64,000 nucleotides of DNA from assembly GCF_009296315.1 (NCBI RefSeq), contig NZ_WHLY01000002.1, positions 4,190,501 through 4,254,500 on the forward strand. Direction: 5' to 3'. Positions 4,609 through 55,317 of this stretch are shown piece by piece. Source of the stretch: Salmonirosea aquatica (lineage in GTDB: Bacteria > Bacteroidota > Bacteroidia > Cytophagales > Spirosomataceae). A program made the position numbers and the translations under genes. The notes below the pieces were generated by a model. The model made no database searches. It was given only the letters and a program-made list of their open reading frames with translations, and was not told the origin of the DNA. Position 1 is the stretch's first letter. Each line of letters starts with the position of its first letter.

Positions 4609-7600
4609 AACCGACCCCACTCAACCAGCCTAAAACCATGCGACCACTGCTGCTGTTGATTCCCGTACTGGCCCTGGTGGTGTGGGCCCTTGTCCCGCAA
4701 CCTCCCGCGAAGCTGTTCCGTCAGCTTCCGTCCTCGCGCACGGGCATATCGTTCAATAACCGGATACAGGAATCCGACTCACTCAATGTATTGCGGTTCG
4801 AGTACCTCTATAATGGCGGGGGCGTAGGAATCGGCGACTTCAATAAGGATGGCTGGCAGGATGTATTCTTTACCGGCAATCAGGTTTCCTGTCGATTGTA
4901 CCTCAATCAGGGGCAACTGGCCGGAAAACCATTGACATTCAAGGATATCACGAAAGAAGCGGGGGTAGGTACCAACGCCTGGTGCACGGGCGTGACGGTA
5001 GTGGATATCAACCAGGATGGCTGGGACGATATATACGTCAGCGTGGCGGGCTTCGGCCCGGATACGACCCGGCGGCGCAATTTACTGTTTGTCAATCAGG
5101 CCAGCGGTGCCGGAAAGCCTGTAACCTTCCGCGAGCAGGCGCAGGTTTATGGACTGGACGATTGCGGATACAGTACCCAAACCGCTTTTTTTGACTACGA
5201 TCACGACGGCGACCTGGACGCCTACGTACTTACCAATGCCCTCGACCAGCACAATCGCAACGCCCTGCGCCCCAAGCATGTGAAGGGCGAAGCGGCCTCC
5301 AACGACCGCCTGTACCGGAACGAGGGGGTAGGCGCGGCGGGCCATCCGGTGTTTGCTAACGTCACCCGCGAAGCGGGCATTCTTACGGAAGGATACGGGC
5401 TGGGAATCGCCGTCAGCGATCTCAACGGCGACGGCTGGGAAGATATCTACTGTTCCAATGATTTCTTATCCAATGATTTGATCTGGGTCAATAACCGCAA
5501 CGGAACCTTTACGAATCGCGCCCCCGACTACCTTACCCACCAGACTCACAATGCCATGGGGGTCGATATCGCCGATATCGACAATGACCAATTGCCTGAT
5601 ATTATGGTAGTCGATATGTTGCCCGGCACCAACGAACGGCGAAAAATGATGCTGCCCGGCTATAACTACAATCGCTTTCAGATGGACCTAGCGATGGGGT
5701 ACCAGCCGCAGTTCATGCGCAATACCTTACAGCTGAACCGTGGGCAGAGCGGAGGGATGCAGGAAGGGGTACCCTCTAGGCCAAACTTTTCGGATATATC
5801 ACAACTGGCGGGTGTCGACAGAACGGACTGGAGTTGGGCTCCTCTTTTCGCCGATTTTGACAATGACGGGTACCGCGACCTACTGATCACCAACGGCTAC
5901 CGCCGCGATGTAACGAATCTGGATTTTACGGCCTATCTGGCCGATCTGCACGCGGGTGGCTTTGGTGAAGGTCAGAAGAAGAATGCGAAGGCCTACCAGC
6001 AGCTCCTGCAGCTTCCCGAAGTCAAACTAGCCAACTACTGCTACCGCAACCGGGGGGGCGAAGGTACCCTGGCCTTTGAGGACGTTTCTGAAAAGTGGGG
6101 CTTTGATGCGCCCAGCTTTTCCAACGGAGCGGCTTATGCCGATCTGGACAACGATGGCGATTTGGATATCGTGATTAATGCTATCGACGATGAGGCGTTC
6201 GTCTATGAGAATACCCTCAATCAAGAGAGCCAGAAAAAAGTACCCGAAAATAACACCTGGCTCCGGCTTACTCTCGACCGCAATTCGGCGCTGGGAACGA
6301 AAGTCAATCTTTACTATAATAGCAAAGTGCAAACGGCAGAATTGAACCCGACGCGGGGGTACGTATCGTCCGTAGAACCTTTTCTGCATTTCGGTTTGGG
6401 AAACGCAGCGAAGGTTGATTCCGTGGAAATCATCTGGAATAACGGACAATATCAAGTGCTGCGAAACATTCCCGCCAATCAGTTGCTGCATATTCCCTAT
6501 CGCCCGATGGGTATTTATAAACAGCCTCTGCCTACTACCCCGGCTTATTTTCAGGAAATTGATCCCCAATTATGGGGGCTGGACTATACACACACAGAAA
6601 CTGAGTTCAACGACTTTGCCCGCACGCCCCTGCTGCCCCATAAGCAGTCACAGAACGGCCCTCCCTTAGCCGTAGCGGACGTCGATGGCAACGGGCTGGA
6701 TGACCTGTTCATCGGGTCTGATTTCGAGCAGGAAAGCTACCTGTATCTACAGCAGGCCAATGGTCGGTTCTTCAAAACCAAGGTACCTAAGGAAGCCAAT
6801 CAGGAGGACACCGGAGCCTTGTTTTTTGATGCCGACCAGGACGGCGACTCCGATTTATATGTCGTCAGCGGGGGGAGCCACGCCGAGGGTACCTCTGCCG
6901 CCTATCAGGATCGACTATACCTGAATGATGGCGTTGGCAACTTCTCTCTGAGCAGGCAGTCTCTTCCCACTATCGATATTAGCGGATCGTGCGTAGTAGC
7001 GGGGGATTTTGACCAGGATGGTGACCTGGATTTATTCCGGGGCAGCCGCCTTATTCCGGGTCAATACCCCATGCCTGGGAAGAGCTTCCTGCTCGAAAAT
7101 AGGGGAGGGCGCTTCCTTGACGTCACGGATCAACTGGCGCCCAGCCTTCGGACTCTGGGGCTGGTTACGTCGGCCGCATGGGCTGATACGGATCGTGATG
7201 GCTGGCCGGACCTGGCTTTGTGCGGAGAGTGGATGCCCATAACCATTCTTTCCAATCAGGCAGGAAAGCAATTTTCTGTACATAAGGTACCGGGCTCAAG
7301 CGGCTGGTGGAATACTCTGACCGCCCGGGATTTTGATCAGGATGGTGATTTGGACCTCATGGCCGGTAACCTGGGATTGAACACCAAGTACAGAGCTTCG
7401 CCAGATGAACCCCTTGAAGTATATGCCGCTGATTTTGACAATAACGGGCGCATAGATCCCATCCTGACTGAGTTCAATGGCAATCGAAAGTGGATTCTGC
7501 CTACCCGCGATTTAATAACCTCCCAGATTCCGTCCATGAAGCGGCGATTCTCGGATTTCCAGTCCTTTGCAACGGCTACGTTTGAGGAGTCATTCACGGA

Positions 7601-38734: not shown

Positions 38735-40558
38735 CTAGTTTTGCATGACGGTTAGCTTTCGATAAAAGCCGTCGAAATTTTCCAGCAATTCTTCATGGGT
38801 ACCCCGTTCGATAATTTGACCCTGGTGCAATACCAGTATCTCATCAGCATGCTGAATGGTGCTAAGGCGGTGGGCGATTACGAGTACGGTACGGTTTTGC
38901 ATCAAATGGGTAAGGGCTTCCTGCACCAGTTTCTCCGACTCCGTGTCCAGGGCGGAGGTAGCTTCGTCGAGGATCAGGATCGGGGGGTTTTTCAGAATGG
39001 CGCGGGCAATGCTCAGGCGCTGGCGCTGGCCGCCCGAGAGTTTGGTACCCCGGTCGCCGATGATGGTCTGGTAGCCTTCGGGCTGCTCCATGATAAAGCC
39101 GTGGGCATTGGCAATGCGGGCGGCTGCCTCTACCTCTTCCGGCGTAACGTCGGCTCCGAAGGCGATGTTGTTGAAAATGGTGTCGTTGAACAGGATGGAT
39201 TCCTGCGTGACAATTCCCATCTGCGCCCGCAGGGAGGCCGGGATAAGTTTTCTCAGATCCTGGCCGTCGATCAGGATTTGTCCTTCGGTGGGATCATAAA
39301 ACCGGGGGACCAGGTCGGCCAGCGTGGACTTGCCGCCGCCCGAGGAACCTACCAAAGCGATGGTTTTTCCCTTTGGCATGGTGAAATTTATGTTTTTCAG
39401 CACGGGCAGGCCTTCCTCGTACGAGAAAGACACGTTTCGGACCTCGATCCGATCCCGGAATTCGGTAAGGGGTACCGCCCGGGGATCTTCGGGAATGGCA
39501 TTGACGGCATCCACCAGTTCTAGCACGCGCTCGCCCGAAGCGATGCCCCGCTGGGTGTTACTGAAGGCGTTGGATATTTCTTTGGCCGGCCGAAGTACCT
39601 GCGAAAATAAAATGATGTAGGAGATGAACTCCGAAGCAGAAAGCTCCGACTGATTAGACAATACGAGCGAACCCCCGTAGAGCAGGATGAGCGCCACCAC
39701 CGTGACCCCCATGAATTCGGAGAAAGGGCCGGCCATTTCGCGCTTGTAGGCCATGGACTTGATCGCCCGGCGGTAGGCGTCGTTCTCCTGTCCAAACCTA
39801 CCTTTAATAAACGGTTCCGCGTTAAAGCCCTTTACCACTCGCATACCCCCGAAGGCTTCGTCCATCAGGCTGATCAGTCCGCCCAGGCGCTGCTGACCCG
39901 TACGGGCATCCTTGCGCATCTGCTTGACGATGTAGCCGATAAACGCCCCCGATACCGGAAACACCAGGAAAGCGAACAGGGTAAGGCTGACTGAGATATT
40001 GAACAGCACCGCCAGGTACACGATAAGCGTGAAAATCTCTTTGAAAGCCGCCGAAAACGTGGTGGCGATAGAATTTTCTACCTCCTGCACGTCGGTCATG
40101 ACCCGCGAAATCAGATCGCCCTTGCGCTCGTTGGAGAAAAACCCCAGTTGTAGGCCGATGGTATTATCGAAGACGGCCTGGCGGAGTCGCGCGACCATGT
40201 TGACTTTGAAGCGCTCCAGAATCCGGGCCGACAGGTACCTGAAGACATCGGAAAGAAAGACCGAGGCGATGATAATGCCGCAGACGAACTGAAGCGCTCC
40301 CAGTTTGCCCCGGCTTTGCAAAAAGGTACCGAAGTAATAATTGAAAAGGCTACCCAGATAGTCGAGACTGAACGAGGGATCAGGCAGGCGTACCACCGTA
40401 GGGGTATCCACCTGATTGAACAGCAGATCGAGCAGCGGAATCAGCAGCGTGAAATTGAGTACCCCGAAGAGGCTCGCCAACAGGGAGGTGAAGAAAAAAG
40501 GAATAATGTACTGCTGTAGTGGACGCGCGTACGAAAGCAATCGCCAGTATATTTTCAT
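38735..40558 (-). CDS. MsbA-type ABC exporter (fused permease and ATPase)
   Basis: 607 residues: six transmembrane helices in the first 320 or so residues, then the nucleotide-binding domain with Walker A GSSGGGKS (Lys at about 410), signature LSGGQRQR, Walker B ILILDEATSALD and the switch His in VIAHRLST. It functions as a homodimeric exporter; lipid or lipid A flipping is the default for Bacteroidota MsbA homologues. The same architecture is used by lasso-peptide exporters (McjD type), but nothing specific supports that role apart from proximity to the RiPP-like precursor at 43086. A perfect minus-strand -7 box TACCTTTG (40563-40570) lies only four bases before the start codon, so the mRNA may be leaderless. 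Confidence 0.93.
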   Translation of the reverse strand: MKIYWRLLSYARPLQQYIIPFFFTSLLASLFGVLNFTLLIPLLDLLFNQVDTPTVVRLPDPSFSLDYLGSLFNYYFGTFLQSRGKLGALQFVCGIIIASVFLSDVFRYLSARILERFKVNMVARLRQAVFDNTIGLQLGFFSNERKGDLISRVMTDVQEVENSIATTFSAAFKEIFTLIVYLAVLFNISVSLTLFAFLVFPVSGAFIGYIVKQMRKDARTGQQRLGGLISLMDEAFGGMRVVKGFNAEPFIKGRFGQENDAYRRAIKSMAYKREMAGPFSEFMGVTVVALILLYGGSLVLSNQSELSASEFISYIILFSQVLRPAKEISNAFSNTQRGIASGERVLELVDAVNAIPEDPRAVPLTEFRDRIEVRNVSFSYEEGLPVLKNINFTMPKGKTIALVGSSGGGKSTLADLVPRFYDPTEGQILIDGQDLRKLIPASLRAQMGIVTQESILFNDTIFNNIAFGADVTPEEVEAAARIANAHGFIMEQPEGYQTIIGDRGTKLSGGQRQRLSIARAILKNPPILILDEATSALDTESEKLVQEALTHLMQNRTVLVIAHRLSTIQHADEILVLHQGQIIERGTHEELLENFDGFYRKLTVMQN

Positions 40559-42173: not shown

Positions 42174-42262
42174 CCCGGGCAAATGGATTTGTCGGTACCA
42201 GGTTACTGCGGATGAATTTCTGAGCGTACCAGGTAGCGCGCACTGACTTGAATAAATTGCTT

Positions 42263-42928
42263 ATGGTCAACTTTGTACAGCCTCAACCCTCATCCCGGTT
42301 AGTATATTTATGTGGTCTATCAGCTTCGACGGAAAAGGAGTTTTGCCGCCACTTCAAAGAATCATTACACGAGTGGGAGTTACGGATATACAGTCTGGAA
42401 GATGGGATGAAACTTGCAATTCACCACAATCCTGCTTATATTTTCCTGTACACCGAAACGATTGACCATCTCACTCAGGTTTTTTCTGATATTGCTTTTT
42501 TGCGGAAGCACTTTCCACATATTAACCGCATTCTGGTATGTACCAACGAATTGTATTCGGAGCGCATGCTTGAGGAGGTCAGCATCGATGGGTTTCTGAT
42601 TCCTGAATCCAAAGGGCCGGAACTGATTTCGTGCGTCAATAACGTAAGCAAAGGATTGAGGTATGTGCACCCCCGCATTCGTCGGACCTATGTGGAAACG
42701 CCGCATCTGCCCGCCAGCATCACGGATCACGAGCGGAAAATCCTGAACTACATATCCAGAGGTATGCAGAACAAAGAGATCGCCGAAGAATTATTTATCA
42801 GCCCTCATACGGTAAAAAACCATAAATCAAAGCTTATGACGAAACTCGAATTGGCCAGGACCATTGATTTGTACAAATTTGCCATGCGGTACGCTACGCA
42901 GCCTACTGTGGAGGCTGTGACCACTTGA
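42263..42928 (+). CDS. LuxR-family regulator with degenerate receiver-like domain, CsgD-like position
   Basis: 221 residues from the ATG at 42263 (a TTG start at 42248 would add five). The first 140 or so residues have a receiver-like pattern (SRLVYLCGL, AYIFLYTE, RILVCTNE) but lack a clear phospho-acceptor Asp pair. The C terminus is a canonical LuxR/GerE helix-turn-helix (ITDHERKILNYISRGMQNKE, then ISPHTVKNHKSKLMTKLEL, about residues 153-210). E. coli CsgD, the curli master activator, has the same architecture, and this gene is immediately upstream of the RiPP-like precursor and the curlin genes on the same strand. Control of that locus is a strong inference from position, not proven. Confidence 0.85.
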   Translation: MVNFVQPQPSSRLVYLCGLSASTEKEFCRHFKESLHEWELRIYSLEDGMKLAIHHNPAYIFLYTETIDHLTQVFSDIAFLRKHFPHINRILVCTNELYSERMLEEVSIDGFLIPESKGPELISCVNNVSKGLRYVHPRIRRTYVETPHLPASITDHERKILNYISRGMQNKEIAEELFISPHTVKNHKSKLMTKLELARTIDLYKFAMRYATQPTVEAVTT

Positions 42929-42971
42929 TCAATAAGTACACTTTCCTATGGATTCTTAGCTTATTTCCTAT

Positions 42972-43001
42972 TTGATGCCTACCCTTTAATCAACACCTTT
43001 G
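42972..43001 (+). promoter_or_regulatory. candidate promoter of the RiPP-like precursor (and possibly the curlins)
   Basis: TTG at 42972-42974, 19 bases, then CACCTTTG at 42994-43001, one mismatch from TAnnTTTG. The precursor ATG is 84 bases downstream. Confidence 0.55.
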
Positions 43002-43085: not shown

Positions 43086-43229
43086 ATGAACAACACAAAG
43101 AAAACGTACACAAAACCGACGTTGAGCGTCAAAGGAAAAGTGCAGAATTTAACGCTGGCCGCTGGCTCTTTCTCGGCTGACGTTCCCGGTGGTGCCACCA
43201 ACGGACCTTTCGGTGGTGGCGGTGGTTAA
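43086..43229 (+). CDS. lasso-peptide-like RiPP precursor (47 aa)
   Basis: The protein starts MNNTKKTYTKPTLSVKGK (an in-frame ATG at 43074 would add MRIL). Residues 8-24 match the lasso leader recognition pattern YxxPxLxxxGxxxxxTx at every defined position: Tyr8, Pro11, Leu13, Gly17, Thr23. With Thr at the penultimate leader position, the core would be AAGSFSAD followed by VPGGATNGPFGGGGG: 23 residues with Ala1 and Asp8 placed to form an eight-residue macrolactam ring. By family, the leader is bound by an RRE protein, cut off by a transglutaminase-like protease and cyclised by an asparagine-synthetase-like enzyme. A candidate cyclase is at 53356; no protease or RRE gene is in the window. The Gly-rich tail is unusual. 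Confidence 0.7.
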   Translation: MNNTKKTYTKPTLSVKGKVQNLTLAAGSFSADVPGGATNGPFGGGGG

Positions 43230-43241: not shown

Positions 43242-43280
43242 TTAGTTAGGGATGAACATTCTTTGTTGATCCCTAACTAA
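43242..43280 (+). terminator. hairpin separating the precursor from the curlin genes
   Basis: Perfect 12-base stem TTAGTTAGGGAT / ATCCCTAACTAA with a 15-base loop, 12 bases after the precursor stop. The T tract behind it is weak, so partial read-through into the curlin genes is possible; it may act as an attenuator or a 3' end stabiliser. Confidence 0.65.
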
Positions 43281-43329: not shown

Positions 43330-44769
43330 ATGAAAAAAATTATCTTATCGCTTGGGATGCTGATCGCGGTCGCAACGGCTTCTTACGCACAAAACAACAC
43401 CGCTACCCTTAACCAGAACAATGGTGCCCGTAACACGGGTAACATGACCCAGAACGGGCAGAACAACCAGGCAAGGATCAACCAGAATGGCGTAGTGGTA
43501 ACCGACAACAAGGCGGTAATCATGCAGACTGGAAAATCCAATCAGGCATTGATCGACGAAGCGGGTAAATTGAACGACGTGATGATCACACAGAGCAACA
43601 CATCCGTTGCAAACCACGATGCGTCTGTGCAGATTATCAACAACGACAGTGAAAATAACTACGTACGCGTAACGCAATCGGGTAAGGGCATGCGGGCCGA
43701 TATCCAGATTCGGGGCGATGGTATGGCTAACGGTGGAAGCCCCGTCATTTTCAACCAATCGGGCGACACAAACCGCGCGCGTTTGTTGGAAACGGGTGGT
43801 AACGACAACGACTACAATGCCGTATCGCTGACCCAGTCGGGCAAGGATGGCCAGTCGTACACCAATCTGGTGGGCGACAACAACTCCATCACGATCAATC
43901 AAGCCGGTAATACCAACAACATCGGTAACTTCGCCGGGGGTGGCCCTGCTATTGGCTCTTCATTTACCCGGACACGGGTTCTGGCTGGACCAAACCAATC
44001 ATTGGCAGGTCCGAACTTCCTGGGTGCGGATGGCACTGCGGTCGGTATAGGAATCAACGCCGGTATCACTGTTGTGGGTGATATGAACACGATCAGTGTA
44101 ACGCAGGGTGCTGCTAGCCGTAACAACTTCGCGGGTATCCAGCTGAATGGTACACAAGCCGATGGAGCTAACCAGAACAAGGCTACCATCAATCAGGCCG
44201 ACAACGCCGAAGACAACCAAGCTTTGATTGTTGTAAACAGCAACCAGGATCGCAACGCGGCTACGATCAACCAAACTGGTTTTGCGCAGTTCAACCGGGC
44301 GGCCATTATCCAGAACGGATCGGACGACATCGCGACCATCAACCAGTCGGGTAAGTTCAACGTGGCCGTTACCCAGCAGCAGATTGGAACCAACACCGGC
44401 TCCAACGTAGCTACGATCAACCAGCCGGGTAATAACAACACGGCTTACACTTTCCAGGAAGGACAAATTGGTAGCCGGGTAACCATTACCCAGAATACCA
44501 ACGGTCATATTGCGGAAGTTTACCAGATCGGAAACGGAAACCACGATGCCACCATTACGCAGGAATCTGTGACGGGCGGTAGCCGCCTGATTCTCCAGCA
44601 GGAGGGTACGGCCAACAAGGCGTTCTTGACCCAAAAGGATATTCAGGGCTTGCCGACCGACGTGGAAATTCGCCAGACGGGTATGAACAATACCGTGAAC
44701 GGAATTGCTACGGGTGGCGTAACGCGCTTTATCCAGCAGAACGGTAACAACAACGTGATCAATCTGTAA
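43330..44769 (+). CDS. large curlin-repeat protein (CsgA-like functional amyloid subunit), 479 aa
   Basis: A signal peptide (ATASYAQ) is followed by more than twenty units of the curlin repeat, recognisable as NxAxIxQxGxxN (NQARINQNG, NKATINQADN, NVATINQPGNNN, HDATITQES). In E. coli CsgA five such repeats stack as beta-arches and form the extracellular curli fibre; this protein is about three times longer. It ends in a repeat (QQNGNNNVINL). Asn, Gln and Gly dominate and Lys/Arg are rare, unlike neighbouring genes. It should be exported through CsgG (50310) with CsgE and CsgF as helpers. The next curlin gene starts 56 bases later. Confidence 0.92.
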   Translation: MKKIILSLGMLIAVATASYAQNNTATLNQNNGARNTGNMTQNGQNNQARINQNGVVVTDNKAVIMQTGKSNQALIDEAGKLNDVMITQSNTSVANHDASVQIINNDSENNYVRVTQSGKGMRADIQIRGDGMANGGSPVIFNQSGDTNRARLLETGGNDNDYNAVSLTQSGKDGQSYTNLVGDNNSITINQAGNTNNIGNFAGGGPAIGSSFTRTRVLAGPNQSLAGPNFLGADGTAVGIGINAGITVVGDMNTISVTQGAASRNNFAGIQLNGTQADGANQNKATINQADNAEDNQALIVVNSNQDRNAATINQTGFAQFNRAAIIQNGSDDIATINQSGKFNVAVTQQQIGTNTGSNVATINQPGNNNTAYTFQEGQIGSRVTITQNTNGHIAEVYQIGNGNHDATITQESVTGGSRLILQQEGTANKAFLTQKDIQGLPTDVEIRQTGMNNTVNGIATGGVTRFIQQNGNNNVINL

Positions 44770-44825: not shown

Positions 44826-47800
44826 ATGAAACGAATACTTTTAATAGTAGGGATCGCTTTTGGCTGCACCTCCGTGTACGCGCAGAACTCGATCCAGCAA
44901 TCGGGCAATAATAACTTCTTTACCGCTGATCAGAACGATAAGACCAACCCTCTGACTGTATATCATGTCAAGCAGTTCCAGGGCTACAACGAGATCAAAA
45001 TCCGTCAGGGTTTCGACGTATTCTCGGCCGGCCAGCAGAACGTAGCCAACCTGAATCAGATTTCCATCGGAGTGACGCAGTTGAACATGCGCAACTACAT
45101 GGACGTATTCCAGGAAGGTGCTTCTAACCGGATCAATTCTGACCAGTATGGCCAGAACAACCGCCTCAAAGCTACGCAGACGGTATTCACCAACACCAGT
45201 ACGATCAATACTTCCCAGTCAGGCTGGAACAACGGTATCATAGTATTGCAGGATGGCGATCCTGCCGGTGGTACTGCGCAGTTCACCACCACCATTCAGC
45301 AGGGAGGAGCGATTCCCGGTAATGCTTATAATGGTGCTAACGGTAATGTTGGGCCACTGCCCAATACCAGCCGCAACACAGTGATGCTGAGCCAGCTCGG
45401 TGTGGGTAGGGGAACCGCCAACATCACGCAGTTGGGTTCATCGGGTTTAGCTACCGTTACGCAACGCGGCGGTGACATTGCTCAAAACCTGATGACCATT
45501 TACCAGACCAACAACGGTGGTGCTAACGTACAGCAGGCGGGTAACAACAACGTCATTACTGTAGCACAGCAGGGCTACCAGTATGCCAAAGTACGGCAGC
45601 AGAGCGCCAATCCAGCTAATCAAACGGAGCCGGTTAACAGCACAATCACGATTCTTCAGGGCGTAAACCAACTGGACGATACCCGCAACTCAGCCGATGT
45701 GAGCCAACTTACAGGTGATGGAAACCAGGCTACTGTAAACCAGAACACAAACGGCGCAGAGCGTAACTATGCTACCATCCGTCAAATCGGAACCCGCCTG
45801 GGCGGTACTCCCAGCACAGTGACGGTAAACCAATTGGGTAAGTCGAGCACGGTGGAAGTAGAGCAAATGGAGAATAGCTCGGGTAACACCGCTAACTTTA
45901 CCCAGGGTATCTCTGAATTGTTCCAGGGTAGCAACGCTAAACTGAACCAGGGTGGCAATGCCAATACCTACAACTCTGCTCAGTATGGTCGGAATAATAA
46001 CATCGGTGGTACGATCGGTGATATGTCATCGTTCGGTACTCAGAGAGGTATCAGCAACAATACGTCGCTGACCCAGAATGGTCGCAACAACCAGATAGCG
46101 CTCAATCAGGCTGGTACGACAAACCAGATCTTGGTTGATCAATTGAACGATCAAGCTTCCACGGAGGGCAACAAGGCTACGGCTACTCAGGGAACTGGTA
46201 CTTCGCAGAACATTATGCAAATCATCCAAAACGTTCCTGATGGAGACAATAACGTGGCCATCGTGAACCAAACGAAGGGTGACCTGAACCAGGCACTGGT
46301 TATTCAGTATGAGGATGATTACGCCTCCATTACCCAAAGTGGTACGGATGATCTGGGCGATCCAAGCACTGTAATTGTCAATCAGCAGACGGCTGGCAAT
46401 GCCAAAGCTACCGTAGTGCAAGCCGATGGTACCAAGGGTGGTGATGTAGTAATCGCACAGGCTGCTATCGGAAACGAAGCCACAGTATCGCAGAACGCCG
46501 GTCGTAGGAACCAGGCACAAGTTTCACAGGGCGACGACATGAACAAGGCGACTGTGACGCAGACGGGAACCCTGGATTTGGCCACACCTAGCATAGTTCT
46601 TGTAAATCAGCTTGGTAAAGCCGGCGAAGTTACCGTAACGCAATCGGCTAACGGAAGCACGACTCAGGTAGATCAGTACGGCGGTGACCGCAACAAGAGT
46701 ACAGTTACGCAGAACGGCACGCGCCGCGACTACGTACGTACCGAGCAGGGTGGTGACGACAACATGTCGACCGTAGGTCAAATGGGCGATAACAACATTG
46801 CCCGCGTATTGCAGGGTGGTGTGTTGGGTACCCTCGACCACGCCATGAACACGGCCTCGATTATGCAGGCAGGTACCGACAACGACGCTGTAACGGCTCA
46901 GGGCGGTATCGGAAATAATGCCTCGATCGACCAGAAGACGGGCCGCGACAACTTTGCCGTTACGGTACAGTATGGTACAACCAACATTGCTAAGACGACG
47001 CAGTCGTCACCCGGCAAGCTGAACAGCGCCACGGTATTGCAGTTGAAAACCAACAACAACCCTGGATTAAGCGGAGCGCTGGGGTCGACCAACGCCAACA
47101 CCGTAGCTGACAACATCAAGGCAGCCAGTGGCAACTATGGTAACGGTATTGACCAGGTGGAGGACAACAACGCTACGGTGAACCAGACGGCAGGTGAAAA
47201 CCAAGTGGCATTTGTACTGCAAACGGGTGACAACGAAACCCTGACGCTGAATCAAATGAACACAGATAACAATGCCTTTGTGCTGCAGGCCGGTGAATTT
47301 GATAAAGCAACGATTACTCAACGTGGATCATTCGGTATCGGCCTTGCTGCCCAGTACGGAACGGACGGTCAGAATGGTAATACTCTGATTGCCGATCAGT
47401 CAGGTTCGTACAACGCATTCGTGGCTGCTCAGGGGTACCACAACAACTCGATCACGATCGATCAGCAGGGCTCTGAGAACGGTTTGAACGGCAGTGGAGT
47501 ACTGACAGGTGGTATTATTGCCGCTCAATACGGTCAGCGTAACACCATCAACCTTACGCAGAACGCTAACATGAGCCTTATTGGGGTTGCCCAAGGTAAC
47601 ATCGCTCCGGCTGTTCCTTCGATCGACTTGGTTGATCTGCTGGGCTTCACGCAGGTGTTCGATAATACGGCTACTGTAAACCAGACGGGTCGTCAGAACA
47701 TTGCGCTGATCGGTCAGCAAGGTGACGGCACCGCGGGCCTTAAGTCAGAAGCTACGATTACGCAGGCAGGTCAAAACAACTTGGCAACGATTCTGCAAGT

Positions 47801-48308
47801 CAATGTAGGCCTGACCGACGTATTCTCACTGCCTAACAAAGCGGTTGCCACGCAGTCATCCACGGTGTCTGAGTCGCAGATCATCATCACACAGCAAGGC
47901 CGTCGTAACGATGCCGACGTTCAGCAGCTAGATGGTCGTAACCAATCCATCACGCTGACCCAGACGTTGGACGAGAACAAAGCTACCCTGAAGCAGTTGA
48001 CGGGTAACACCAACGTAATTATATTGAATCAGGGTACGGATCCCGGCCGCGTCGGTCACACGGCCACCATTACCCAGAGCGGCGAGGTGAACACGGCCCT
48101 GTTGGATCAGTCAGGATATGAGAACTCTCTGACGCTGACTCAGACGGGTAACCGCAATACGTTGCAAGGTCTGGGTGGTAATCCTACCGCACAGCAAGGT
48201 GGCCACAATAACATGGCTACGTTGTCACAAACGGGAGAAGATCACGTGATCAACTTCAACCAGTCGGGCATGAATAACATGTCAACGATCGTGCAAACGA
48301 ACCTCTAA
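44826..48308 (+). CDS. giant curlin-repeat protein (1160 aa)
   Basis: A signal peptide (CTSVYAQ) and then curlin repeats through the whole length, probably 45-50 (typical units NQATVNQNTNG, NIARVLQGG, NTATVNQTGRQNIALIGQQG, NMATLSQTGEDHV). No other domain is visible. At this size it is many times larger than CsgA and could form a whole fibre segment or a long solenoid in one chain. The final repeats (NHVINFNQSGMNN-like) stay regular to the C terminus, so it is not obviously truncated. It carries no GGTACC until 46430, while most of the window is rich in that motif. It lies between the 479-residue curlin and the two short ones. Confidence 0.92.
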   Translation: MKRILLIVGIAFGCTSVYAQNSIQQSGNNNFFTADQNDKTNPLTVYHVKQFQGYNEIKIRQGFDVFSAGQQNVANLNQISIGVTQLNMRNYMDVFQEGASNRINSDQYGQNNRLKATQTVFTNTSTINTSQSGWNNGIIVLQDGDPAGGTAQFTTTIQQGGAIPGNAYNGANGNVGPLPNTSRNTVMLSQLGVGRGTANITQLGSSGLATVTQRGGDIAQNLMTIYQTNNGGANVQQAGNNNVITVAQQGYQYAKVRQQSANPANQTEPVNSTITILQGVNQLDDTRNSADVSQLTGDGNQATVNQNTNGAERNYATIRQIGTRLGGTPSTVTVNQLGKSSTVEVEQMENSSGNTANFTQGISELFQGSNAKLNQGGNANTYNSAQYGRNNNIGGTIGDMSSFGTQRGISNNTSLTQNGRNNQIALNQAGTTNQILVDQLNDQASTEGNKATATQGTGTSQNIMQIIQNVPDGDNNVAIVNQTKGDLNQALVIQYEDDYASITQSGTDDLGDPSTVIVNQQTAGNAKATVVQADGTKGGDVVIAQAAIGNEATVSQNAGRRNQAQVSQGDDMNKATVTQTGTLDLATPSIVLVNQLGKAGEVTVTQSANGSTTQVDQYGGDRNKSTVTQNGTRRDYVRTEQGGDDNMSTVGQMGDNNIARVLQGGVLGTLDHAMNTASIMQAGTDNDAVTAQGGIGNNASIDQKTGRDNFAVTVQYGTTNIAKTTQSSPGKLNSATVLQLKTNNNPGLSGALGSTNANTVADNIKAASGNYGNGIDQVEDNNATVNQTAGENQVAFVLQTGDNETLTLNQMNTDNNAFVLQAGEFDKATITQRGSFGIGLAAQYGTDGQNGNTLIADQSGSYNAFVAAQGYHNNSITIDQQGSENGLNGSGVLTGGIIAAQYGQRNTINLTQNANMSLIGVAQGNIAPAVPSIDLVDLLGFTQVFDNTATVNQTGRQNIALIGQQGDGTAGLKSEATITQAGQNNLATILQVNVGLTDVFSLPNKAVATQSSTVSESQIIITQQGRRNDADVQQLDGRNQSITLTQTLDENKATLKQLTGNTNVIILNQGTDPGRVGHTATITQSGEVNTALLDQSGYENSLTLTQTGNRNTLQGLGGNPTAQQGGHNNMATLSQTGEDHVINFNQSGMNNMSTIVQTNL

Positions 48309-48432: not shown

Positions 48433-48798
48433 ATGAAAAATATACTAATACTACTTGGTTTGGTGGGTTCCGCCACAGTTGCGTCCGCTCAAACTGCCGA
48501 AAAACCTTCTCAGTTAGTGCAGAAGGGAGAAAAAAACGTCATCAACATGAATCTCAAGAGCACGGAAGGCGATTCGCTATCCAACCATACCCGCATCATC
48601 ACGCAGACAGGTACCAACCAAATCCACATCGAAGGCAATACGACCCCCGATTCGCTCCGTACCCTCATGGAAAACGTAGCGATCGAACAGGCCGGCCAGA
48701 AAAATAAGGTATCTATACAGAGCCAGGGCGGCAAAGGCAATACCGTACAAATCAGTCAGTCCGGCTCAGGCAATTCCATCAGCATCAAACAAAACTAA
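48433..48798 (+). CDS. small curlin-like protein (121 aa)
   Basis: A signal peptide (TVASAQ) followed by a charged stretch and curlin-like units in the second half (NKVSIQSQGGKGNTVQISQS, GNSISIKQN). It is close in size to E. coli CsgA and CsgB. The irregular spacer LKSTEGDSLSNHTRI suggests a nucleator or capping role rather than bulk fibre, but that is inference. The next gene starts 7 bases after the stop. Confidence 0.8.
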   Translation: MKNILILLGLVGSATVASAQTAEKPSQLVQKGEKNVINMNLKSTEGDSLSNHTRIITQTGTNQIHIEGNTTPDSLRTLMENVAIEQAGQKNKVSIQSQGGKGNTVQISQSGSGNSISIKQN

Positions 48799-48805: not shown

Positions 48806-49285
48806 ATGAAGAAATTACTGGCATTTGCAGGAACGGTACTGCTGCTCAACAGTGCGGCGCATGCCCAGCAACTCAGCGGCTCTTCGGAACTCACACTGCT
48901 CAACCAATCGGGGCTATCTATCAAACAAGTACTGGCTTCTGCCTCGTCGGTAAGTCTGGACGAATTGACTTCCTACCAGCGAGGTAATGCCAACCAGCAA
49001 ACCATCAATCCACAGCAGGGTGAGAATCAAATCCAGATGATTCAGGATGGGTCGTTCAACACCATGGATGTACAATTATTGGGCGAACGGAATAATTTTC
49101 AATTTGTTCAGCAGGGTAATCGCAACGTTCTGGAGCTGCGCAACGTACAGGCCAATGACAATACCCTGCAGATCATACAGCGTGGTAACAATAACCAACT
49201 CATAGACCAAGGCTCGGGCTTACTGAGCCGACCCATCCGAATCGAGCAGAGCGGAGGCATGAAAGTATTTATCAATGGACAATAA
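48806..49285 (+). CDS. CsgB-like small curlin protein (159 aa)
   Basis: A signal peptide (NSAAHAQ) and a non-repetitive segment (about residues 25-70) are followed by four or five curlin units (NQIQMIQDGSFNTMDVQLLG, NNFQFVQQGNRN, NTLQIIQRGNNN). The last unit ends differently (PIRIEQSGGMKVFINGQ), reminiscent of the divergent last repeat by which CsgB anchors fibres to the cell. Its stop overlaps the csgE start by 11 bases, indicating translational coupling to the export machinery. Confidence 0.82.
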   Translation: MKKLLAFAGTVLLLNSAAHAQQLSGSSELTLLNQSGLSIKQVLASASSVSLDELTSYQRGNANQQTINPQQGENQIQMIQDGSFNTMDVQLLGERNNFQFVQQGNRNVLELRNVQANDNTLQIIQRGNNNQLIDQGSGLLSRPIRIEQSGGMKVFINGQ

Positions 49286-49802
49286 AGAAAGGTGCAAACG
49301 ATTCCTTGGGTTAATACTGACCGTAACAGGAATGTTTGTGAGTAGTATGAGTGTGGGACAGGCAGTGGAGGAAGACTACGACGAAAGAACCTTTGTACCC
49401 CTAGAGCAAAATATCTCGCTCGAATCCCTATCCAACGTATTACTACTGGACGACACTCGTACTAAAAATGGTCGTGATTTTTACGAGTTTTTTTATCAGC
49501 AGTGGCTTTCTGTCCAGACGGACACTACCGTAATTTCCCCTACGGCTTTCTCCGACATTGGAGAAGAACTGAATGTTGCGGTGGACGAGCAACCCGCTCC
49601 GGGTGGTATTGGCACTTCCACAGTTGTGTCCATTTCGGTCAACGACGTTATGATTTACCAGCAATTTCTTCAACCTCGCCAGGGTGTGATTGAACTTATG
49701 GCGGAGGATGCCATTGGGGCCTTAACGCAGTATATTCAAAACTATCAGGAATTTCAAAAACAATTGGGCAGCGACGACCAAATGGGTAGCGGTATATACT
49801 AA
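49275..49802 (+). CDS. csgE: curli assembly factor CsgE
   Basis: 175 residues with an N-terminal signal segment. The core matches CsgE: the block TKNGRDFYEFFYQQW, then a strand region and VVSISVNDVMIYQQFLQPR, the most recognisable part. CsgE is the periplasmic adaptor that caps the CsgG pore as a nonamer and guides curlin subunits into it. The N-terminal extension before residue 45 and the acidic linker are longer than in E. coli. It starts inside the preceding curlin gene and is followed 29 bases later by csgF. Confidence 0.9.
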   Translation: MDNKERCKRFLGLILTVTGMFVSSMSVGQAVEEDYDERTFVPLEQNISLESLSNVLLLDDTRTKNGRDFYEFFYQQWLSVQTDTTVISPTAFSDIGEELNVAVDEQPAPGGIGTSTVVSISVNDVMIYQQFLQPRQGVIELMAEDAIGALTQYIQNYQEFQKQLGSDDQMGSGIY

Positions 49803-49831: not shown

Positions 49832-50260
49832 ATGAAAAAGTTACTACTCCTCACACTTATTGCTTTAGGCGGAACCCTCAGTGTACAAGCGCAGACCTTG
49901 ATATACCGGGCGCAAAACCCAGCTTTTGGCGGGTACTACTTCAATGCCCAATGGCTGCAGGCTTCGGCCCAGTTCCAGGATAAAAGCAAGGATCCCACGG
50001 CTCCGTTAACCGGCCAGACGGGCAGTGGTTTCAACAATAGCAATTCGTTGGATGATTTCTCTTCCTCGTTGAGCCGCCAGTTGCTCAGCCGCATTACTAC
50101 GCAGTTGTTGAATGCCCAGTTCGGAGAAGACTCTTTACAGGAGGGTACCTTTCAGTTTGGCGACCTGCGGGTAGACATTACTAATGCCGCCGATGGTGTA
50201 AACATCCGCATTGTGGATGGCCAGGGAGGCGAAACCACCGTCACCGTCCCTTACTTCTGA
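49832..50260 (+). CDS. csgF: curli assembly factor CsgF
   Basis: 142 residues. After the signal peptide (SVQAQ) comes the CsgF signature YRAQNPAFGGYYFNAQWL, matching the E. coli FRNPNFGG region whose N terminus inserts into the CsgG channel. The rest (SSLSRQLLSRITTQLL, then FGDLRVDITNAADGVNIRIVD, TVTVPYF) follows the family to the end. CsgF forms the outer constriction of the secretion pore and couples it to surface nucleation. The csgG start lies 49 bases downstream. Confidence 0.92.
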   Translation: MKKLLLLTLIALGGTLSVQAQTLIYRAQNPAFGGYYFNAQWLQASAQFQDKSKDPTAPLTGQTGSGFNNSNSLDDFSSSLSRQLLSRITTQLLNAQFGEDSLQEGTFQFGDLRVDITNAADGVNIRIVDGQGGETTVTVPYF

Positions 50261-50309: not shown

Positions 50310-51755
50310 ATGCAATTGAAAAAATACCTCCTCAAGCTATGCTTGATGGCCGTCGCCATTGTGCTGAACGGTTGTGCAGCCTATTTTCATCAGCCCACTA
50401 AACCCCGATCAGCCCGGTTGGGCGAAGAAACATCCATATCGGAAGAATTACGTTCGTTACCAGCGCCCAAAGAAGCGATTACGACCGCGGTTTATAAGTT
50501 TCGGGATCAGACTGGACAATATAAGCCTTCGGAAACTTCGAACTTTTCTACCGCAGTGACGCAGGGAGCAACAAATATCCTGCTCAAAGCCATGGAGGAC
50601 AGTAAGTGGTTTGTCAATATCGAACGGGAGAACGTGAGTAACCTTCTGAACGAACGGAAGATAATCCGGTCGAGCGTAGCCCAGTACAGTAATAACAATA
50701 CCAATGAACTTCTACCCCCACTGTTGTATGCCGGGATGATCCTGGAGGGAGGCATTATTTCTTATGATGCCAATATCATTACAGGAGGTGGGGGACTACG
50801 CTATTTCGGTGCGGGAGGGTCAACCGAATATCGGCAGGACCGGGTGACGGTGTACCTTCGAGCCATTGCGACCCGCTCGGGTAAAATCCTGAAAACGGTA
50901 TACTCTTCCAAAACCATTCTTTCCCAATCGGTGAATGCCAGTTTGTACAGGGTAGTGCGCTTCAAGCGCATTCTTGAAGCTGAAACGGGCTTCACCACGA
51001 CGGAACCCAACCAAATGGCGGTAACGGAAGCCATCGAAAAGGCAGTACAGGCACTGATATTGGAAGGAATTAAAGACGGTCTATGGGAGGCGGATGAAAA
51101 ATTTGCCGAGCAAACTAAACAACAGTTGGCCGACTACGAAGAAGAAAAGCAACTCATGGCCAACACGGATGTGTACGGTAACAGCGATCATTTTGAACGC
51201 CCCCGAATTAGTGTATCCCCCTATGCATCCACGCTACGTTTGCGGGGTGACTATGAGGTACCCACCTGGAAACCGGGATATGGCCTGAATGTAACGGTGG
51301 GCTTAACACCCAAATGGGGCGTACAAGCCAATGGATTTGTCAGCTCGTTTTCTACTTCAACGGCTGACCGATCTTTCGTGATGGACCGGAACTGGCGCAA
51401 TGCTGATTTATCCTTGGTATATCAAAGTTTACCCTTCGAGCGTTATTCTCCTTTCGGGAGTTTTGGGGGCGGAATCTCCCAGACAGCCAGTGGTTCGGGC
51501 TTTTCCAGTGATCTCAAAACTTTTTCCTATCTGAAAGGAGGAATTGGCATCGAAGCCCTGCTTACCAAGAATATCGGTTTACGGGCGATGGCTGACTACT
51601 ACTGGATGACAAACGATATGGTGGATGGCATAGCCAACGGACGGCTCAATGATTCGTTCCTCAGGTTTTCGGCCGGCGTTTCCTTTTATATAGGTAAAGG
51701 TTCCAAAAAGCGCGCTATTGTAGCCACGGAGCCTGTCCCCGCCACCAACAATTAA
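50310..51755 (+). CDS. csgG: curli secretion channel CsgG with extra C-terminal barrel-like domain
   Basis: 481 residues from the ATG at 50310; the frame is open further upstream but only this start gives the lipoprotein signal (VLNGC, Cys22). Residues of about 23-290 are CsgG: EAITTAVYKFRDQTGQYKPS, then NILLKAMEDSKWFVNIERENVSNLLNERKIIRSS, and GGIISYDANI near the pore loop. E. coli CsgG ends near residue 277, but here about 190 residues follow with paired strands typical of an outer membrane protein A-like barrel (GLTPKWGVQANGFVSSF, FRFSAGVSFYIG-type ending). The nonameric channel exports curlins; the added domain could wrap or anchor it. It is the last csg-named gene in the row. Confidence 0.92.
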   Translation: MQLKKYLLKLCLMAVAIVLNGCAAYFHQPTKPRSARLGEETSISEELRSLPAPKEAITTAVYKFRDQTGQYKPSETSNFSTAVTQGATNILLKAMEDSKWFVNIERENVSNLLNERKIIRSSVAQYSNNNTNELLPPLLYAGMILEGGIISYDANIITGGGGLRYFGAGGSTEYRQDRVTVYLRAIATRSGKILKTVYSSKTILSQSVNASLYRVVRFKRILEAETGFTTTEPNQMAVTEAIEKAVQALILEGIKDGLWEADEKFAEQTKQQLADYEEEKQLMANTDVYGNSDHFERPRISVSPYASTLRLRGDYEVPTWKPGYGLNVTVGLTPKWGVQANGFVSSFSTSTADRSFVMDRNWRNADLSLVYQSLPFERYSPFGSFGGGISQTASGSGFSSDLKTFSYLKGGIGIEALLTKNIGLRAMADYYWMTNDMVDGIANGRLNDSFLRFSAGVSFYIGKGSKKRAIVATEPVPATNN

Positions 51756-51819: not shown

Positions 51820-53343
51820 ATGAATTTCAAGGTAAGCCATGTGGCGTTGGTGCTGATTGCGGCACTGTGTATTGGGTTGGCATCTTGCACGGAGGATTTA
51901 TTTGTCACCCCTAAGGTGTACGGGCGGATCACGGGTAAGATCGTTGATAATGCTACGAAAAAACCACTTAGTGATGTACTCATCAAGCTGAATCCTTCCG
52001 GCAGAAGCTTCCAGACCGACACGTCGGGCAACTTTGCTTTTGACAGCCTGGTGGTGGGGAAGTATACGATTAGTACTGAAAAGAAGGGGCTCTACAACGA
52101 GTATGTCACGGTAGAGGTGACAGAAGACCAAAATCCGGTGGTGACGATTTATATGTCCGAGGACCTGAAATCGAACCGTCCCCCCACCAAACCCACCAAT
52201 CCTATTCCTGCCGTGGGAGGTGCGGTAGCGGGGATTAACAACGTGCTCCTGAGCTGGACCGCTTCCGACCCTGACCGGGATACTCTGACCTACGACGTGT
52301 ATCTGTTTAAAAGCGGAGGCTCACCCACTACACCCTACATCACGAATTTTACGAATGATTCGCTGATTGTCAATAATCTGGAATACGATAAAACCTATTA
52401 CTGGCAAGTAGTGGCAAAGGATGGGCGAGAATCTGTATTCAGTGAAGTATGGACGTTTACAACCCCTAAATTCCCTTCCCTATCCTACGTGTTTACGCGA
52501 TCTACGGGCGGCAATTATCAGATATATGCCGCAAATGACGATAACACAATTGTGAAACTGACCTCGGAGGGAAGTAACTGGCGGCCCATAGTAAGTCCTA
52601 ACCGTGAGCAGATCGCATTTATCTCCAATCGATCGACAAGCTTGCATATTTATGTGATCAATCTGGATGGAACAGGGCTGAGAAAGATAACCACGGTCCC
52701 TATCGCCGGTCTTATGGCACTGGATTTGTCATTCAGCTGGGCTAATAATGGGTCACGGATTATTTATCCGAGCAATAACAAACTATATTCGATTGCCACT
52801 GATGGTACGGGCCTGACCGAAATAGCACGTGCGGCAAATGGCAGACAGTATGCGGGTTGCAACTGGAATGACGCTACCAAAACGGTAGTAGCTCGTACTA
52901 CCGGTGAAACAGTATACGACAATGAATTGGAGCTAATCTATTCGAGTGGTTTCAAAGAAACAATTCTTACCAGTTCCCGACGCGTTGGTAATCCGGTACT
53001 ATCCATCGATGGGGGTGAAGTTCTTTTCTCCATGGACATTAATGAGTTCCGCAACGAGGCGGGGCGTCAAATCGATGCGAGAATCTTTGAGCTTTACCTG
53101 AATGACAAGTCGCTGCACGATCTGTCCGCTTCTGCCACAGGGGGTAGTAATGGCCTGCAAAAGCCAGCGGGTAGTAATGATCTGGATCCCCGTTATTCCC
53201 CTAACGGCCAAAACATAATCTTTACCAATGTCCTCAATGACGACGCATCGGTTCCTAGCTTATATGTTACTGAATTGAATAATGGGCGGGAGCGTAACAA
53301 AATTGTTACCAATGCCGAAATGGGCTACTGGCGTCAGCAATAA
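51820..53343 (+). CDS. lipoprotein with carboxypeptidase-like, fibronectin III-like and TolB-type propeller domains
   Basis: 507 residues with lipobox GLASC (Cys23). Domains in order: a CarboxypepD_reg-like sandwich (about 30-110: YGRITGKIVDNATKKPLSDVLIKL), a fibronectin III-like domain (about 120-215: LSWTASDPDRDTLTYDVYLF, ending TYYWQVVAKDG), and PD40/TolB-like propeller blades (GSNWRPIVSPNREQIAFISNR, LDPRYSPNGQNIIFTN). It follows csgG by 64 bases and precedes the asparagine-synthetase-like gene by 12. A surface tether or receptor for the curli fibre is a reasonable guess, but the family has no assigned function I know of. Confidence 0.8.
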   Translation: MNFKVSHVALVLIAALCIGLASCTEDLFVTPKVYGRITGKIVDNATKKPLSDVLIKLNPSGRSFQTDTSGNFAFDSLVVGKYTISTEKKGLYNEYVTVEVTEDQNPVVTIYMSEDLKSNRPPTKPTNPIPAVGGAVAGINNVLLSWTASDPDRDTLTYDVYLFKSGGSPTTPYITNFTNDSLIVNNLEYDKTYYWQVVAKDGRESVFSEVWTFTTPKFPSLSYVFTRSTGGNYQIYAANDDNTIVKLTSEGSNWRPIVSPNREQIAFISNRSTSLHIYVINLDGTGLRKITTVPIAGLMALDLSFSWANNGSRIIYPSNNKLYSIATDGTGLTEIARAANGRQYAGCNWNDATKTVVARTTGETVYDNELELIYSSGFKETILTSSRRVGNPVLSIDGGEVLFSMDINEFRNEAGRQIDARIFELYLNDKSLHDLSASATGGSNGLQKPAGSNDLDPRYSPNGQNIIFTNVLNDDASVPSLYVTELNNGRERNKIVTNAEMGYWRQQ

Positions 53344-53355: not shown

Positions 53356-55317
53356 ATGAGCGGTATTGTAGGACTAATCCGGTGGGACGGTGAAAAACCG
53401 GCCCCCGGATTGATCCGGCAGATGGCCGAACGGATCGAACACCGCGGCCCCGATGGTTCAGAATTTCTTATTCAGGGAACTGCCGCATTGGGGTACCTGC
53501 ATTTAAAAGTCACTCCCGAATCTTTTTACGAAGCCCAACCCCTGACCGACGATGCGGGCCTGGTGCTGGTGGCCGATGCCCGCATCGATAACCGGACCGA
53601 ACTACTTTTAACTTTAGGGCTCGGGGCACCGTCTGAATATGATCCTATACCGGATAGTCGGCTGATTCTGGCCGCTTACCAAAAGTGGGGAGAAGCCTGC
53701 CTGGATTTTTTGATCGGGGATTTTGCTTTCGTTATTTGGGATTCTGCTACCCAACAAATCTTCTGTGGACGTGACCATTCAGGAGTGCGTCCATTTTATT
53801 ACCATTACCTTCCTGGCCAGTACTTCGTTTTCGCTTCTGAAATCAAAGCATTATGGGCATTCGATGCGATTCCTAAGGAACTCGATGAAAGTCGCGTGGC
53901 CAATTACCTCTGCCATTGGGGACAGCATAACATCTACCAGCACAATACCTTCTTTAAGGAAATAAACAGTTTGCCGCCAGCCCATTGCCTGGTGGCCGAT
54001 CAGCAGCAGCTCAGGGAGCGTATGTATTGGAAGGTAGATCCCAAAAGCTACCAATACCAGAGTGAAGAGGAATTTCTGGCGGCTTTTAAAGTTACTTTTC
54101 TGGAAGCTGTACGGTGCCGTATCAGAACGCCTTATGCGGTGAGTTCCTTCCTGAGTGGCGGGCTGGATTCTTCCTCAGTGGCGGCTGTGGCAGCCACCCT
54201 TCTCCAGCAGGAGGAATGTACCTTAGCCACGTATTACATGGATACCGAGCTGGCGGAAACCTCCGAAAAAGAATACGTACTTCCTTTTCTGGAAAGGTAC
54301 CCTGTACGACATACTGATACCCTCGGTGAACAGGATTACTATGGGAATCTGGCCAAGATAGCCCGGATGACCGATATGCCGGAGATGTTTTCGCTGACAT
54401 ACAATAACTTCGACCCCCTCCTGAAGGATGTGAACCGAGCCGAAAGCCGGGTTTTGTTGACGGGTAGCGATGGAGATACTGTCGTAGGATATGGTACCGA
54501 GTACATTTATGAAGCTATTAAGGTGGGGAATTGGAAACTGGCTGCGGAACGCATAACGCAGGCCCACGACCCCCGTGATTACCAAAAAGTATTCGGCAGT
54601 AAAGAAGGAAAAACGGTGTACTACCGACGAATGATTGCCCTGCTGCTGGGAATATTACCGACGATGTTCGACCGGACAAAAGCGGGATGGGAGTTTTTCA
54701 AAGGCGCTGTTTTTCATCTGAAAATTCCACCACTTTTTCTGACGAAGGTATTTCTGGAAAAATTTTCACGTAAGGTAGGTACCCCCGAACCCTACTCAGT
54801 AGATCCTACCTTACCTGGCAAGTGCGTTCCTTTTATGAAAGAGGGTAAAGCTTTGCACCCAACCACTAATTTGCTGATCAACCGGGGCATGCTGTACCAG
54901 ATGATGAGTGAGGTAAGTGAATATTATGACATCATCGGGGCGCATCATCAGGTACAGATCGTGCATCCTTTTTTTGACAAACGCCTCATTGAATTGTGCA
55001 TGTTCATCCCATCGAAGCTTAAATTTTACGAAGGTTATGGCCGGGGACCTCTGCGCGAAGCAATGCGTGATTTTCTGCCACAGAAAATTCTGCGCCGGAA
55101 GGGCAAAATTGATTTTACGCCCTTCATGGATAAACAGCTGGCCGATCAGCAGCCCGAGCCAGATTCCGTGATTGAAGCTCACCGATCGTTGCTAGAAGGA
55201 TTTGTTGTGGACAATCCGAATTCTGGTATACCTACTGCTCCAGCTCCGGCCAAATATTCCCGCCTGCACCATCGGATTTTGTATTTTCTCCACTGGCGCA
55301 AGGCCCAGGGAATTTAA
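53356..55317 (+). CDS. asparagine-synthetase-like protein without glutaminase Cys (candidate lasso cyclase)
   Basis: 653 residues. The N-terminal domain (1 to about 220) is an AsnB-type Ntn hydrolase (EHRGPDGSEF, LVLVADARIDNRTELL), but residue 2 is Ser instead of the nucleophilic Cys that every glutamine-using AsnB needs. The second domain has the ATP pyrophosphatase loop SGGLDSSS at 267-274 and the family block HPFFDKRLIELCMFIPSKLK. It would still adenylate an Asp or Glu side chain but not take ammonia from glutamine, the situation in lasso cyclases (McjC type). It starts 12 bases after the previous stop, so it belongs to the curli operon. A free-ammonia asparagine synthetase or other peptide-modifying role is also possible. 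Confidence 0.8.
   Translation: MSGIVGLIRWDGEKPAPGLIRQMAERIEHRGPDGSEFLIQGTAALGYLHLKVTPESFYEAQPLTDDAGLVLVADARIDNRTELLLTLGLGAPSEYDPIPDSRLILAAYQKWGEACLDFLIGDFAFVIWDSATQQIFCGRDHSGVRPFYYHYLPGQYFVFASEIKALWAFDAIPKELDESRVANYLCHWGQHNIYQHNTFFKEINSLPPAHCLVADQQQLRERMYWKVDPKSYQYQSEEEFLAAFKVTFLEAVRCRIRTPYAVSSFLSGGLDSSSVAAVAATLLQQEECTLATYYMDTELAETSEKEYVLPFLERYPVRHTDTLGEQDYYGNLAKIARMTDMPEMFSLTYNNFDPLLKDVNRAESRVLLTGSDGDTVVGYGTEYIYEAIKVGNWKLAAERITQAHDPRDYQKVFGSKEGKTVYYRRMIALLLGILPTMFDRTKAGWEFFKGAVFHLKIPPLFLTKVFLEKFSRKVGTPEPYSVDPTLPGKCVPFMKEGKALHPTTNLLINRGMLYQMMSEVSEYYDIIGAHHQVQIVHPFFDKRLIELCMFIPSKLKFYEGYGRGPLREAMRDFLPQKILRRKGKIDFTPFMDKQLADQQPEPDSVIEAHRSLLEGFVVDNPNSGIPTAPAPAKYSRLHHRILYFLHWRKAQGI

What the first reader, a model, noticed from the sequence alone, without database searches (positions are those of the whole stretch)
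43086..43229. Short gene with a complete lasso-peptide leader motif next to curlin genes
Seen: a 47-codon gene matches YxxPxLxxxGxxxxxTx at every fixed position and puts a ring-capable Asp at core position 8 after Ala1. It has a candidate promoter and its own hairpin. Known: this motif is what RRE (B1) proteins bind in lasso pathways, and the ring joins residue 1 to Asp/Glu at 7-9. Inference: it encodes a RiPP, possibly a lasso peptide with a very Gly-rich tail.
Basis: partly seen in the sequence, partly recalled or inferred. Interest (0 to 1): 0.85.

Follow-up and report, generated by a model that had tools for sequence, protein, structure and literature searches.

The report
Lasso-peptide genes built into curli operon
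A tiny gene at the head of a bacterial amyloid-fibre (curli) operon looks like a real lasso-peptide precursor, and its likely ring-closing enzyme sits at the other end of the same operon, so these bacteria seem to make a knotted peptide together with their sticky surface fibres.

Summary
The 47-codon ORF is real and matches the lasso leader motif at every fixed position, with Asp at core position 8. The motif alone is weak evidence (0.09 expected by chance per window). Two closely related genera encode the same peptide at the same place (77-78% identical, pN much lower than pS). It scores 455 bits against the lasso cyclase model and 240 against asparagine synthetase; the genome's own AsnB shows the reverse. 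The order A - curlins - csgE/F/G - lipoprotein - C is conserved in the window's genome, Persicitalea and Arundinibacter; among 222 family genomes this A and this C occur in exactly these three. Five related genera have the curli operon without A or C. The RRE (B1), the protease (B2), a kinase and a nucleotidyltransferase form one locus 3.4 Mb away. Best reading: a lasso-pathway RiPP co-produced with curli, matured by a split pathway. Threading, export and function are not shown. Side finding: most other lasso-type precursors in this family sit beside type IX-secreted protein genes (28 of 34 upstream neighbours, at most 1 of 83 background genes).

The parts
42248..42928 (+). LuxR/GerE-type response regulator just upstream of A; probable regulator of the operon
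   Evidence: PF00196 E 5.3e-17; same place in Persicitalea and Arundinibacter, about 49% identity
42942..42971 (+). tandem TTTCCTAT-N14-TTTCCTAT, possible regulator site
   Evidence: exact here; same boxes and spacing in Arundinibacter, degenerate in Persicitalea
42972..43001 (+). candidate Bacteroidota-type promoter TTGA-N18-CACCTTTG
   Evidence: TTGA-N18-TAATATTG at the matching place in Persicitalea; consensus match only
43086..43229 (+). A: lasso-type RiPP precursor; leader codons 43086-43157, core codons 43158-43226 (AAGSFSADVPGGATNGPFGGGGG), predicted ring Ala1-Asp8
   Evidence: motif, orthologs, purifying selection, subthreshold NCBIfam lasso hits
43242..43280 (+). stem-loop between A and the first curlin gene, probable partial terminator or 3' stabiliser
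   Evidence: z -4.3 here; -4.0 and -4.3 at the same position in the two relatives with unrelated sequence
43330..44769 (+). curlin repeat protein 1 (secreted amyloid subunit)
   Evidence: PF07012 E 1.9e-20
44826..48308 (+). curlin repeat protein 2
   Evidence: PF07012 E 5.1e-40
48433..48798 (+). small curlin-like protein
   Evidence: PF07012 19.8 bits, just below cut-off 20.7
48806..49285 (+). secreted protein of the curli operon
   Evidence: no Pfam hit; syntenic in relatives
49275..49802 (+). csgE
   Evidence: PF10627 E 2.2e-14
49832..50260 (+). csgF
   Evidence: PF10614 E 4.8e-37
50310..51755 (+). csgG, curli secretion channel
   Evidence: PF03783 E 4e-61
51820..53343 (+). carboxypeptidase-regulatory/PD40 protein with a lipoprotein-like N-terminus; usual last gene of the operon in the family
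   Evidence: PF13620, PF07676; follows csgG in all 12 genera found
53356..55317 (+). C: lasso-type isopeptide-forming cyclase (AsnB-like; residue 2 is Ser, not the glutaminase Cys)
   Evidence: NF033535 454.9 bits vs asn_synth 240; tree; PF00733; synthetase fold

Best explanation
The ORF encodes the precursor (A) of a lasso-pathway RiPP that has been built into a curli operon. A is the first gene behind the operon's likely promoter, and its dedicated cyclase (C) is the last. When curli is made, A is translated. A single RRE protein (B1) and its transglutaminase-like protease (B2), encoded 3.4 Mb away, bind the Tyr/Pro/Leu leader and cut after Leu24. C then adenylates Asp8 of the core and closes an Ala1-Asp8 macrolactam, probably threaded. 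The HprK-like kinase beside B1/B2 may phosphorylate the invariant Ser4. The product is probably released with the amyloid fibres and acts in or on the curli matrix, as a matrix-bound signal, antimicrobial or modulator of the fibre. Shown by sequence: A and its conservation, C, B1/B2/K/N, synteny, paired distribution. Inferred: cleavage, cyclisation, ring size, phosphorylation. Unknown: threading, export route and biological role.
For: Motif and Asp8. Core and leader under purifying selection. C is a lasso-type cyclase by profile, by tree (curli-linked Cs form one clade, 100/100, grouped with the Cs of canonical lasso clusters G200/G192, apart from the MCGI AsnBs) and has the AsnB/beta-lactam synthetase fold. 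B1 resembles TbiB1, E 5.7e-13, and TfuB1. B2 passes NF033537, 79 vs 33 bits, with Cys and His conserved. The A...C arrangement is syntenic in three genera. A-class and C-class occur in the same 3 of 222 genomes (1/C(222,3) = 5.6e-7). Five other genera have the operon without A or C. Family-wide, A-type peptides and B2 co-occur: 100 both, 2 A only, 14 B2 only, 106 neither, p about 1e-44.
Against: C and B1 score below the NCBIfam cut-offs (455 vs 525; 67 vs 80), as do the precursor models, although a C from a complete canonical cluster also falls below (452). No dedicated exporter or isopeptidase lies in the operon; the nearby ABC exporter is housekeeping. B1/B2 are not linked to A. The genome has two further A-type precursors and a second C, so A-C pairing rests on synteny only. 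The Gly-rich tail offers few bulky plug residues. Only three genomes carry the arrangement. No expression or mass data exist.
Confidence: 0.72

Rival explanations
1. A is a RiPP of the B1/B2/K/N type that stays linear (like the linear polyphosphorylated peptides, LPPs): the leader is removed and serines are phosphorylated or otherwise modified, while C does something else, such as amidation or asparagine synthesis.
For: The trans hub is exactly B1-B2-HprK-like-NTP_transf_5 with no cyclase, the enzyme set described for LPPs (PMC13381572). Gly3-Ser4 of the core is invariant in all 20 family precursors.
Against: A lasso-type cyclase is syntenic with A in all three genomes and its close orthologs are found in no other family genome. 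The LPP leader has a different extended motif. Thr(-2) and the ring Asp are conserved.
Confidence: 0.12
2. A and C were carried into the operon by chance or as a hitchhiking cassette: a free lasso peptide such as a bacteriocin that merely borrows the curli promoter and has no function in the matrix.
For: The same genomes carry other A-C loci unrelated to curli, and five genera run the operon without A/C.
Against: A and C flank the operon rather than forming one block and have kept these positions while the curlins diverged to 33-45% identity. Lasso-type precursors in this family generally sit beside secreted-protein genes.
Confidence: 0.3
3. The ORF is not translated or not a precursor; the motif is a chance match in the curli 5' leader.
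For: The motif alone is expected 0.09 times per window; precursor models hit only below cut-off.
Against: Synonymous changes are near saturation while protein changes are few in three genera; the cyclase pairing and B2 co-occurrence.
Confidence: 0.03

Closest known systems
Phosphorylated lasso clusters with A, B1, B2, C, K and N: bsf of Bradymonas sediminis (PMC10368454) and paeninodin (described in PMC8498205)
   Same: YxxPxL leader, discrete RRE (B1), B2 protease, AsnB-like C, HprK-type kinase and nucleotidyltransferase; bsf has a ring to Asp8 and Ser3 phosphorylation
   Different: Here A and C flank a curli operon; B1, B2, K and N lie 3.4 Mb away and must serve several precursors; no ABC exporter D in the operon; Thr(-2) rather than Ile
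Canonical lasso clusters of the same family (e.g. G200/L172, G192/L177, G220/L171)
   Same: Homologous A, B1, B2, K and C; C of G200/G192 groups with the curli-linked C; the G200 core LDAGSDTADV is close to LAAGSFSADV
   Different: One cluster; neighbours are type IX-secreted proteins or other genes, not curlins
Curli operons (type VIII secretion) of Bacteroidota, surveyed in PMC3521004
   Same: Curlin repeat proteins, csgE, csgF, csgG
   Different: That survey has no hit for asparagine synthetase; csgC and csgD are reported missing in most Bacteroidota; A and C are additions seen in three genera only
Linear polyphosphorylated peptides (LPPs) of Bacillota (PMC13381572)
   Same: RRE, protease, kinase and nucleotidyltransferase with a [Y/W]xxP leader
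   Different: LPP clusters lack a cyclase; here a lasso-type cyclase is paired with A

Membership tests
Lasso peptide pathway (RRE-dependent) | Precursor leader YxxPxL...G...Thr(-2) | tested here: met
   every fixed position; curated models hit below cut-off
Lasso peptide pathway (RRE-dependent) | Asp/Glu at core position 7-9 | tested here: met
   Asp8, invariant in the three orthologs
Lasso peptide pathway (RRE-dependent) | AsnB-like cyclase C paired with A | tested here: met
   53356-55317; NF033535 454.9 vs AsnB 240 bits, though under the 525 cut-off; tree; synteny
Lasso peptide pathway (RRE-dependent) | B1 RRE protein in the genome | tested here: met
   PF05402 over cut-off; TbiB1 homology E 5.7e-13
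Lasso peptide pathway (RRE-dependent) | B2 transglutaminase-like protease | tested here: met
   NF033537 79.3 bits, cut-off 33; Cys and His conserved
Lasso peptide pathway (RRE-dependent) | A, B and C in one gene cluster | tested here: not met
   A and C share the operon; B1/B2 are 3.4 Mb away, also unlinked in both relatives. Usual, not strictly defining
Lasso peptide pathway (RRE-dependent) | Threaded lariat product | not testable with these tools
   needs MS/MS, ion mobility or NMR
Linear polyphosphorylated peptides | no macrolactam cyclase with the precursor | tested here: not met
   C pairs with A
Curli (type VIII secretion) operon | curlin repeats with csgE, csgF and csgG | tested here: met
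Asparagine synthetase B (for C) | catalytic Cys at residue 2 and best score to AsnB model | tested here: not met
   MSGIV, not MCGI; scores favour lasso cyclase; the own AsnB shows the reverse, 471 vs 285 bits

The most novel reading that the evidence does not exclude
In Spirosomataceae, lasso-type RiPPs are partners of secreted surface proteins: precursor genes are placed beside curlins or type IX-secreted proteins (often near a PorU2-like sortase), and one shared maturation hub serves several such precursors. The peptides would then work on the cell surface or in the matrix, as ligands, anchors or assembly modulators of their partner, a role not described for lasso peptides in the papers searched.
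Probability: 0.35. Interest if true: 0.9.

Novelty: new variant of a known kind. Interest (0 to 1): 0.72.

Why it matters
The literature searched here treats lasso peptides mainly as antimicrobials or binders made from compact clusters. A precursor-cyclase pair fixed at the two ends of an amyloid operon would tie a lasso-type RiPP to the biofilm matrix, and would show a split pathway in which one leader-recognition and protease module serves precursors placed in different operons. Both points are directly testable by deletion, mass spectrometry and fibre-binding assays in non-pathogenic environmental bacteria. The arrangement is also easily overlooked, because the precursor is small and C reads as asparagine synthase.

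Tried and rejected
The motif alone as proof: rejected (0.09 expected per window). The ABC exporter at 38735-40558 as a lasso exporter D: rejected, since orthologs occur in 18 of 24 relatives including other families. C as an ordinary AsnB: rejected. GTDB-wide scan with C patterns: only Persicitalea and Arundinibacter, but it used two short patterns, so distant cases may be missed. Order-wide sample of 390 genomes with the A-class model: only the own genome; the sample is thin. Papers linking lasso peptides with curli or with type IX secretion: none relevant found; the library lacks most subscription journals. PDB search with the peptide: no hit.

Full report
What was claimed. A 47-codon ORF beside curlin genes carries a full lasso-leader motif and a ring-capable Asp8. 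The sequence shows exactly that at 43086-43229. The motif alone is weak: once in the window, 0.09 expected, and curated precursor models hit only below cut-off.

Is the gene real? In all three, a LuxR-type regulator precedes the peptide and a curlin gene follows it. Synonymous differences are near saturation (pS 0.74-0.80) and amino-acid differences few (pN 0.09-0.18) over leader and core. The core stretch SADVPGGAT is invariant. A strong stem-loop lies between A and curlin 1 in each genome with unrelated sequence. A candidate promoter and a tandem TTTCCTAT repeat precede A.

The missed enzyme. A genome-wide search for Asn_synthase domains found four genes, one of them inside the window at the end of the curli operon, 53356-55317. 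It scores 454.9 bits to the lasso cyclase model NF033535 and 240 to asparagine synthetase; the genome's own AsnB scores 285 and 471. The curated cyclase cut-off (525) is not reached, but a C from a complete lasso cluster in the family (G200) also scores 452. Residue 2 is Ser instead of the glutaminase Cys. In a maximum-likelihood tree the three curli-linked Cs form one clade (100/100) grouped with the Cs of the G200 and G192 lasso clusters (81/61, modest), apart from MCGI-type AsnBs. AlphaFold gives the AsnB/beta-lactam synthetase fold (pLDDT 72).

Pairing. The order A - curlin 1 - curlin 2 - two small secreted proteins - csgE - csgF - csgG - CarboxypepD_reg/PD40 protein - C is the same in all three genomes. 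Among 222 family genomes, the A class occurs in three and close C orthologs in the same three. The CarboxypepD_reg gene follows csgG in every genus where it was found, and five of those operons read in full have neither A nor C. So A and C look like additions to an older operon. One further genome, G023, has a more distant C and an A-like ORF tail-to-tail with the end of its curli operon.

B proteins in trans. The genome holds one PqqD-type B1 and one B2, adjacent, 3.4 Mb from the window, followed by an HprK-like protein and an NTP_transf_5 nucleotidyltransferase. B1 resembles TbiB1 and TfuB1, solved lasso RREs; B2 passes its curated cut-off. The same B1-B2-K-N unit without A or C is found in both relatives. 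The gene set matches the bsf cluster, where the kinase phosphorylates Ser3 and Gly1 closes on Asp8 (PMC10368454). Gly3-Ser4 is invariant in 20 family precursors, so Ser4 phosphorylation is a reasonable guess. The own genome has three A-type precursors and two lasso-type Cs, so the hub must serve more than one A.

Family-wide support. A-type peptides were found in 102 of 222 genomes and B2 in 114; 100 have both, and the two A-only genomes are incomplete or fragmented assemblies (Fisher p about 1e-44). Shared ancestry inflates this number, but it agrees with the A peptides being substrates of the B1/B2 machinery.

A wider pattern, not part of the finding. Of 34 same-strand upstream neighbours of lasso-type precursors, 28 carry the type IX sorting domain TIGR04183, as do 9 of 23 downstream neighbours. 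In 83 other ORFs of the same loci the model does not appear among families with two or more members, so at most one has it (p about 5e-20 with one). Several C loci also carry a PorU2-like sortase (NF052324 925 bits; loci L038, L045, L049, L052, L171, L177 and L179). The curli case fits as a variant in which the secreted partner is an amyloid. Related genera are counted more than once, so the effect size is not exact.

Mechanism and uncertainty. Identity as a lasso-pathway RiPP is well supported by sequence. Cleavage, ring closure and phosphorylation are inferred from the enzyme set. Threading, export and purpose are not shown; no exporter is in the operon, and the nearby ABC transporter is housekeeping. 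Rivals kept are a linear LPP-like product (PMC13381572) and a free peptide that only borrows the curli promoter.

Novelty. A, B1, B2, C, K and N are known kinds, and curli operons are known. The fixed A...C bracket around a curli operon with B1/B2 in trans was not found in the literature searched (open-access library only).

Noticed in passing
L038 9588-12490, L046, L051, L055, L073, L077, L080, L085, L086 and others: Lasso-type precursor genes across the family sit directly beside type IX-secreted (TIGR04183) proteins: 28/34 upstream and 9/23 downstream neighbours, at most 1/83 background. Some partners are ice-binding-like proteins (NF045625).
   Followed up: partly
L038 6281-9586, L171 16062-19322, L177 2118-5333, L052, L179: A PorU2-like C25 sortase and a ~230-aa putative lipoprotein recur next to lasso-type C genes.
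   Followed up: partly
L002 8234-11008; L174 7007-9799; L175 6459-10356; L178 8174-10935: Stand-alone B1-B2-HprK-like-NTP_transf_5 locus without precursor or cyclase, apparently serving precursors in trans.
   Followed up: partly
L039 about 6600-7550 (G000:C2:1341314): A third A-type precursor in the own genome beside a type IX cargo protein 95% identical over 206 residues to the one at L038, with no C within several kb: a duplicated cargo-precursor pair.
   Followed up: partly
L170 10688-14457: In G023 a more distant lasso-type C and an A-like ORF lie tail-to-tail with the end of a curli operon: a possible second case of curli-lasso linkage.
   Followed up: partly
L046, L047, L050, L051, L053, L054, L056, L058-L060: Orphan precursors with the near-constant core K-T-G-S-x-S/T-D-F-G-S/G-N occur without C nearby, several per genome; they predict a 7-residue ring or an uncyclised product.
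   Followed up: no
window 42942-42971: Tandem TTTCCTAT repeat with 22-bp period upstream of the operon, conserved in Arundinibacter; possible LuxR-type regulator site.
   Followed up: partly
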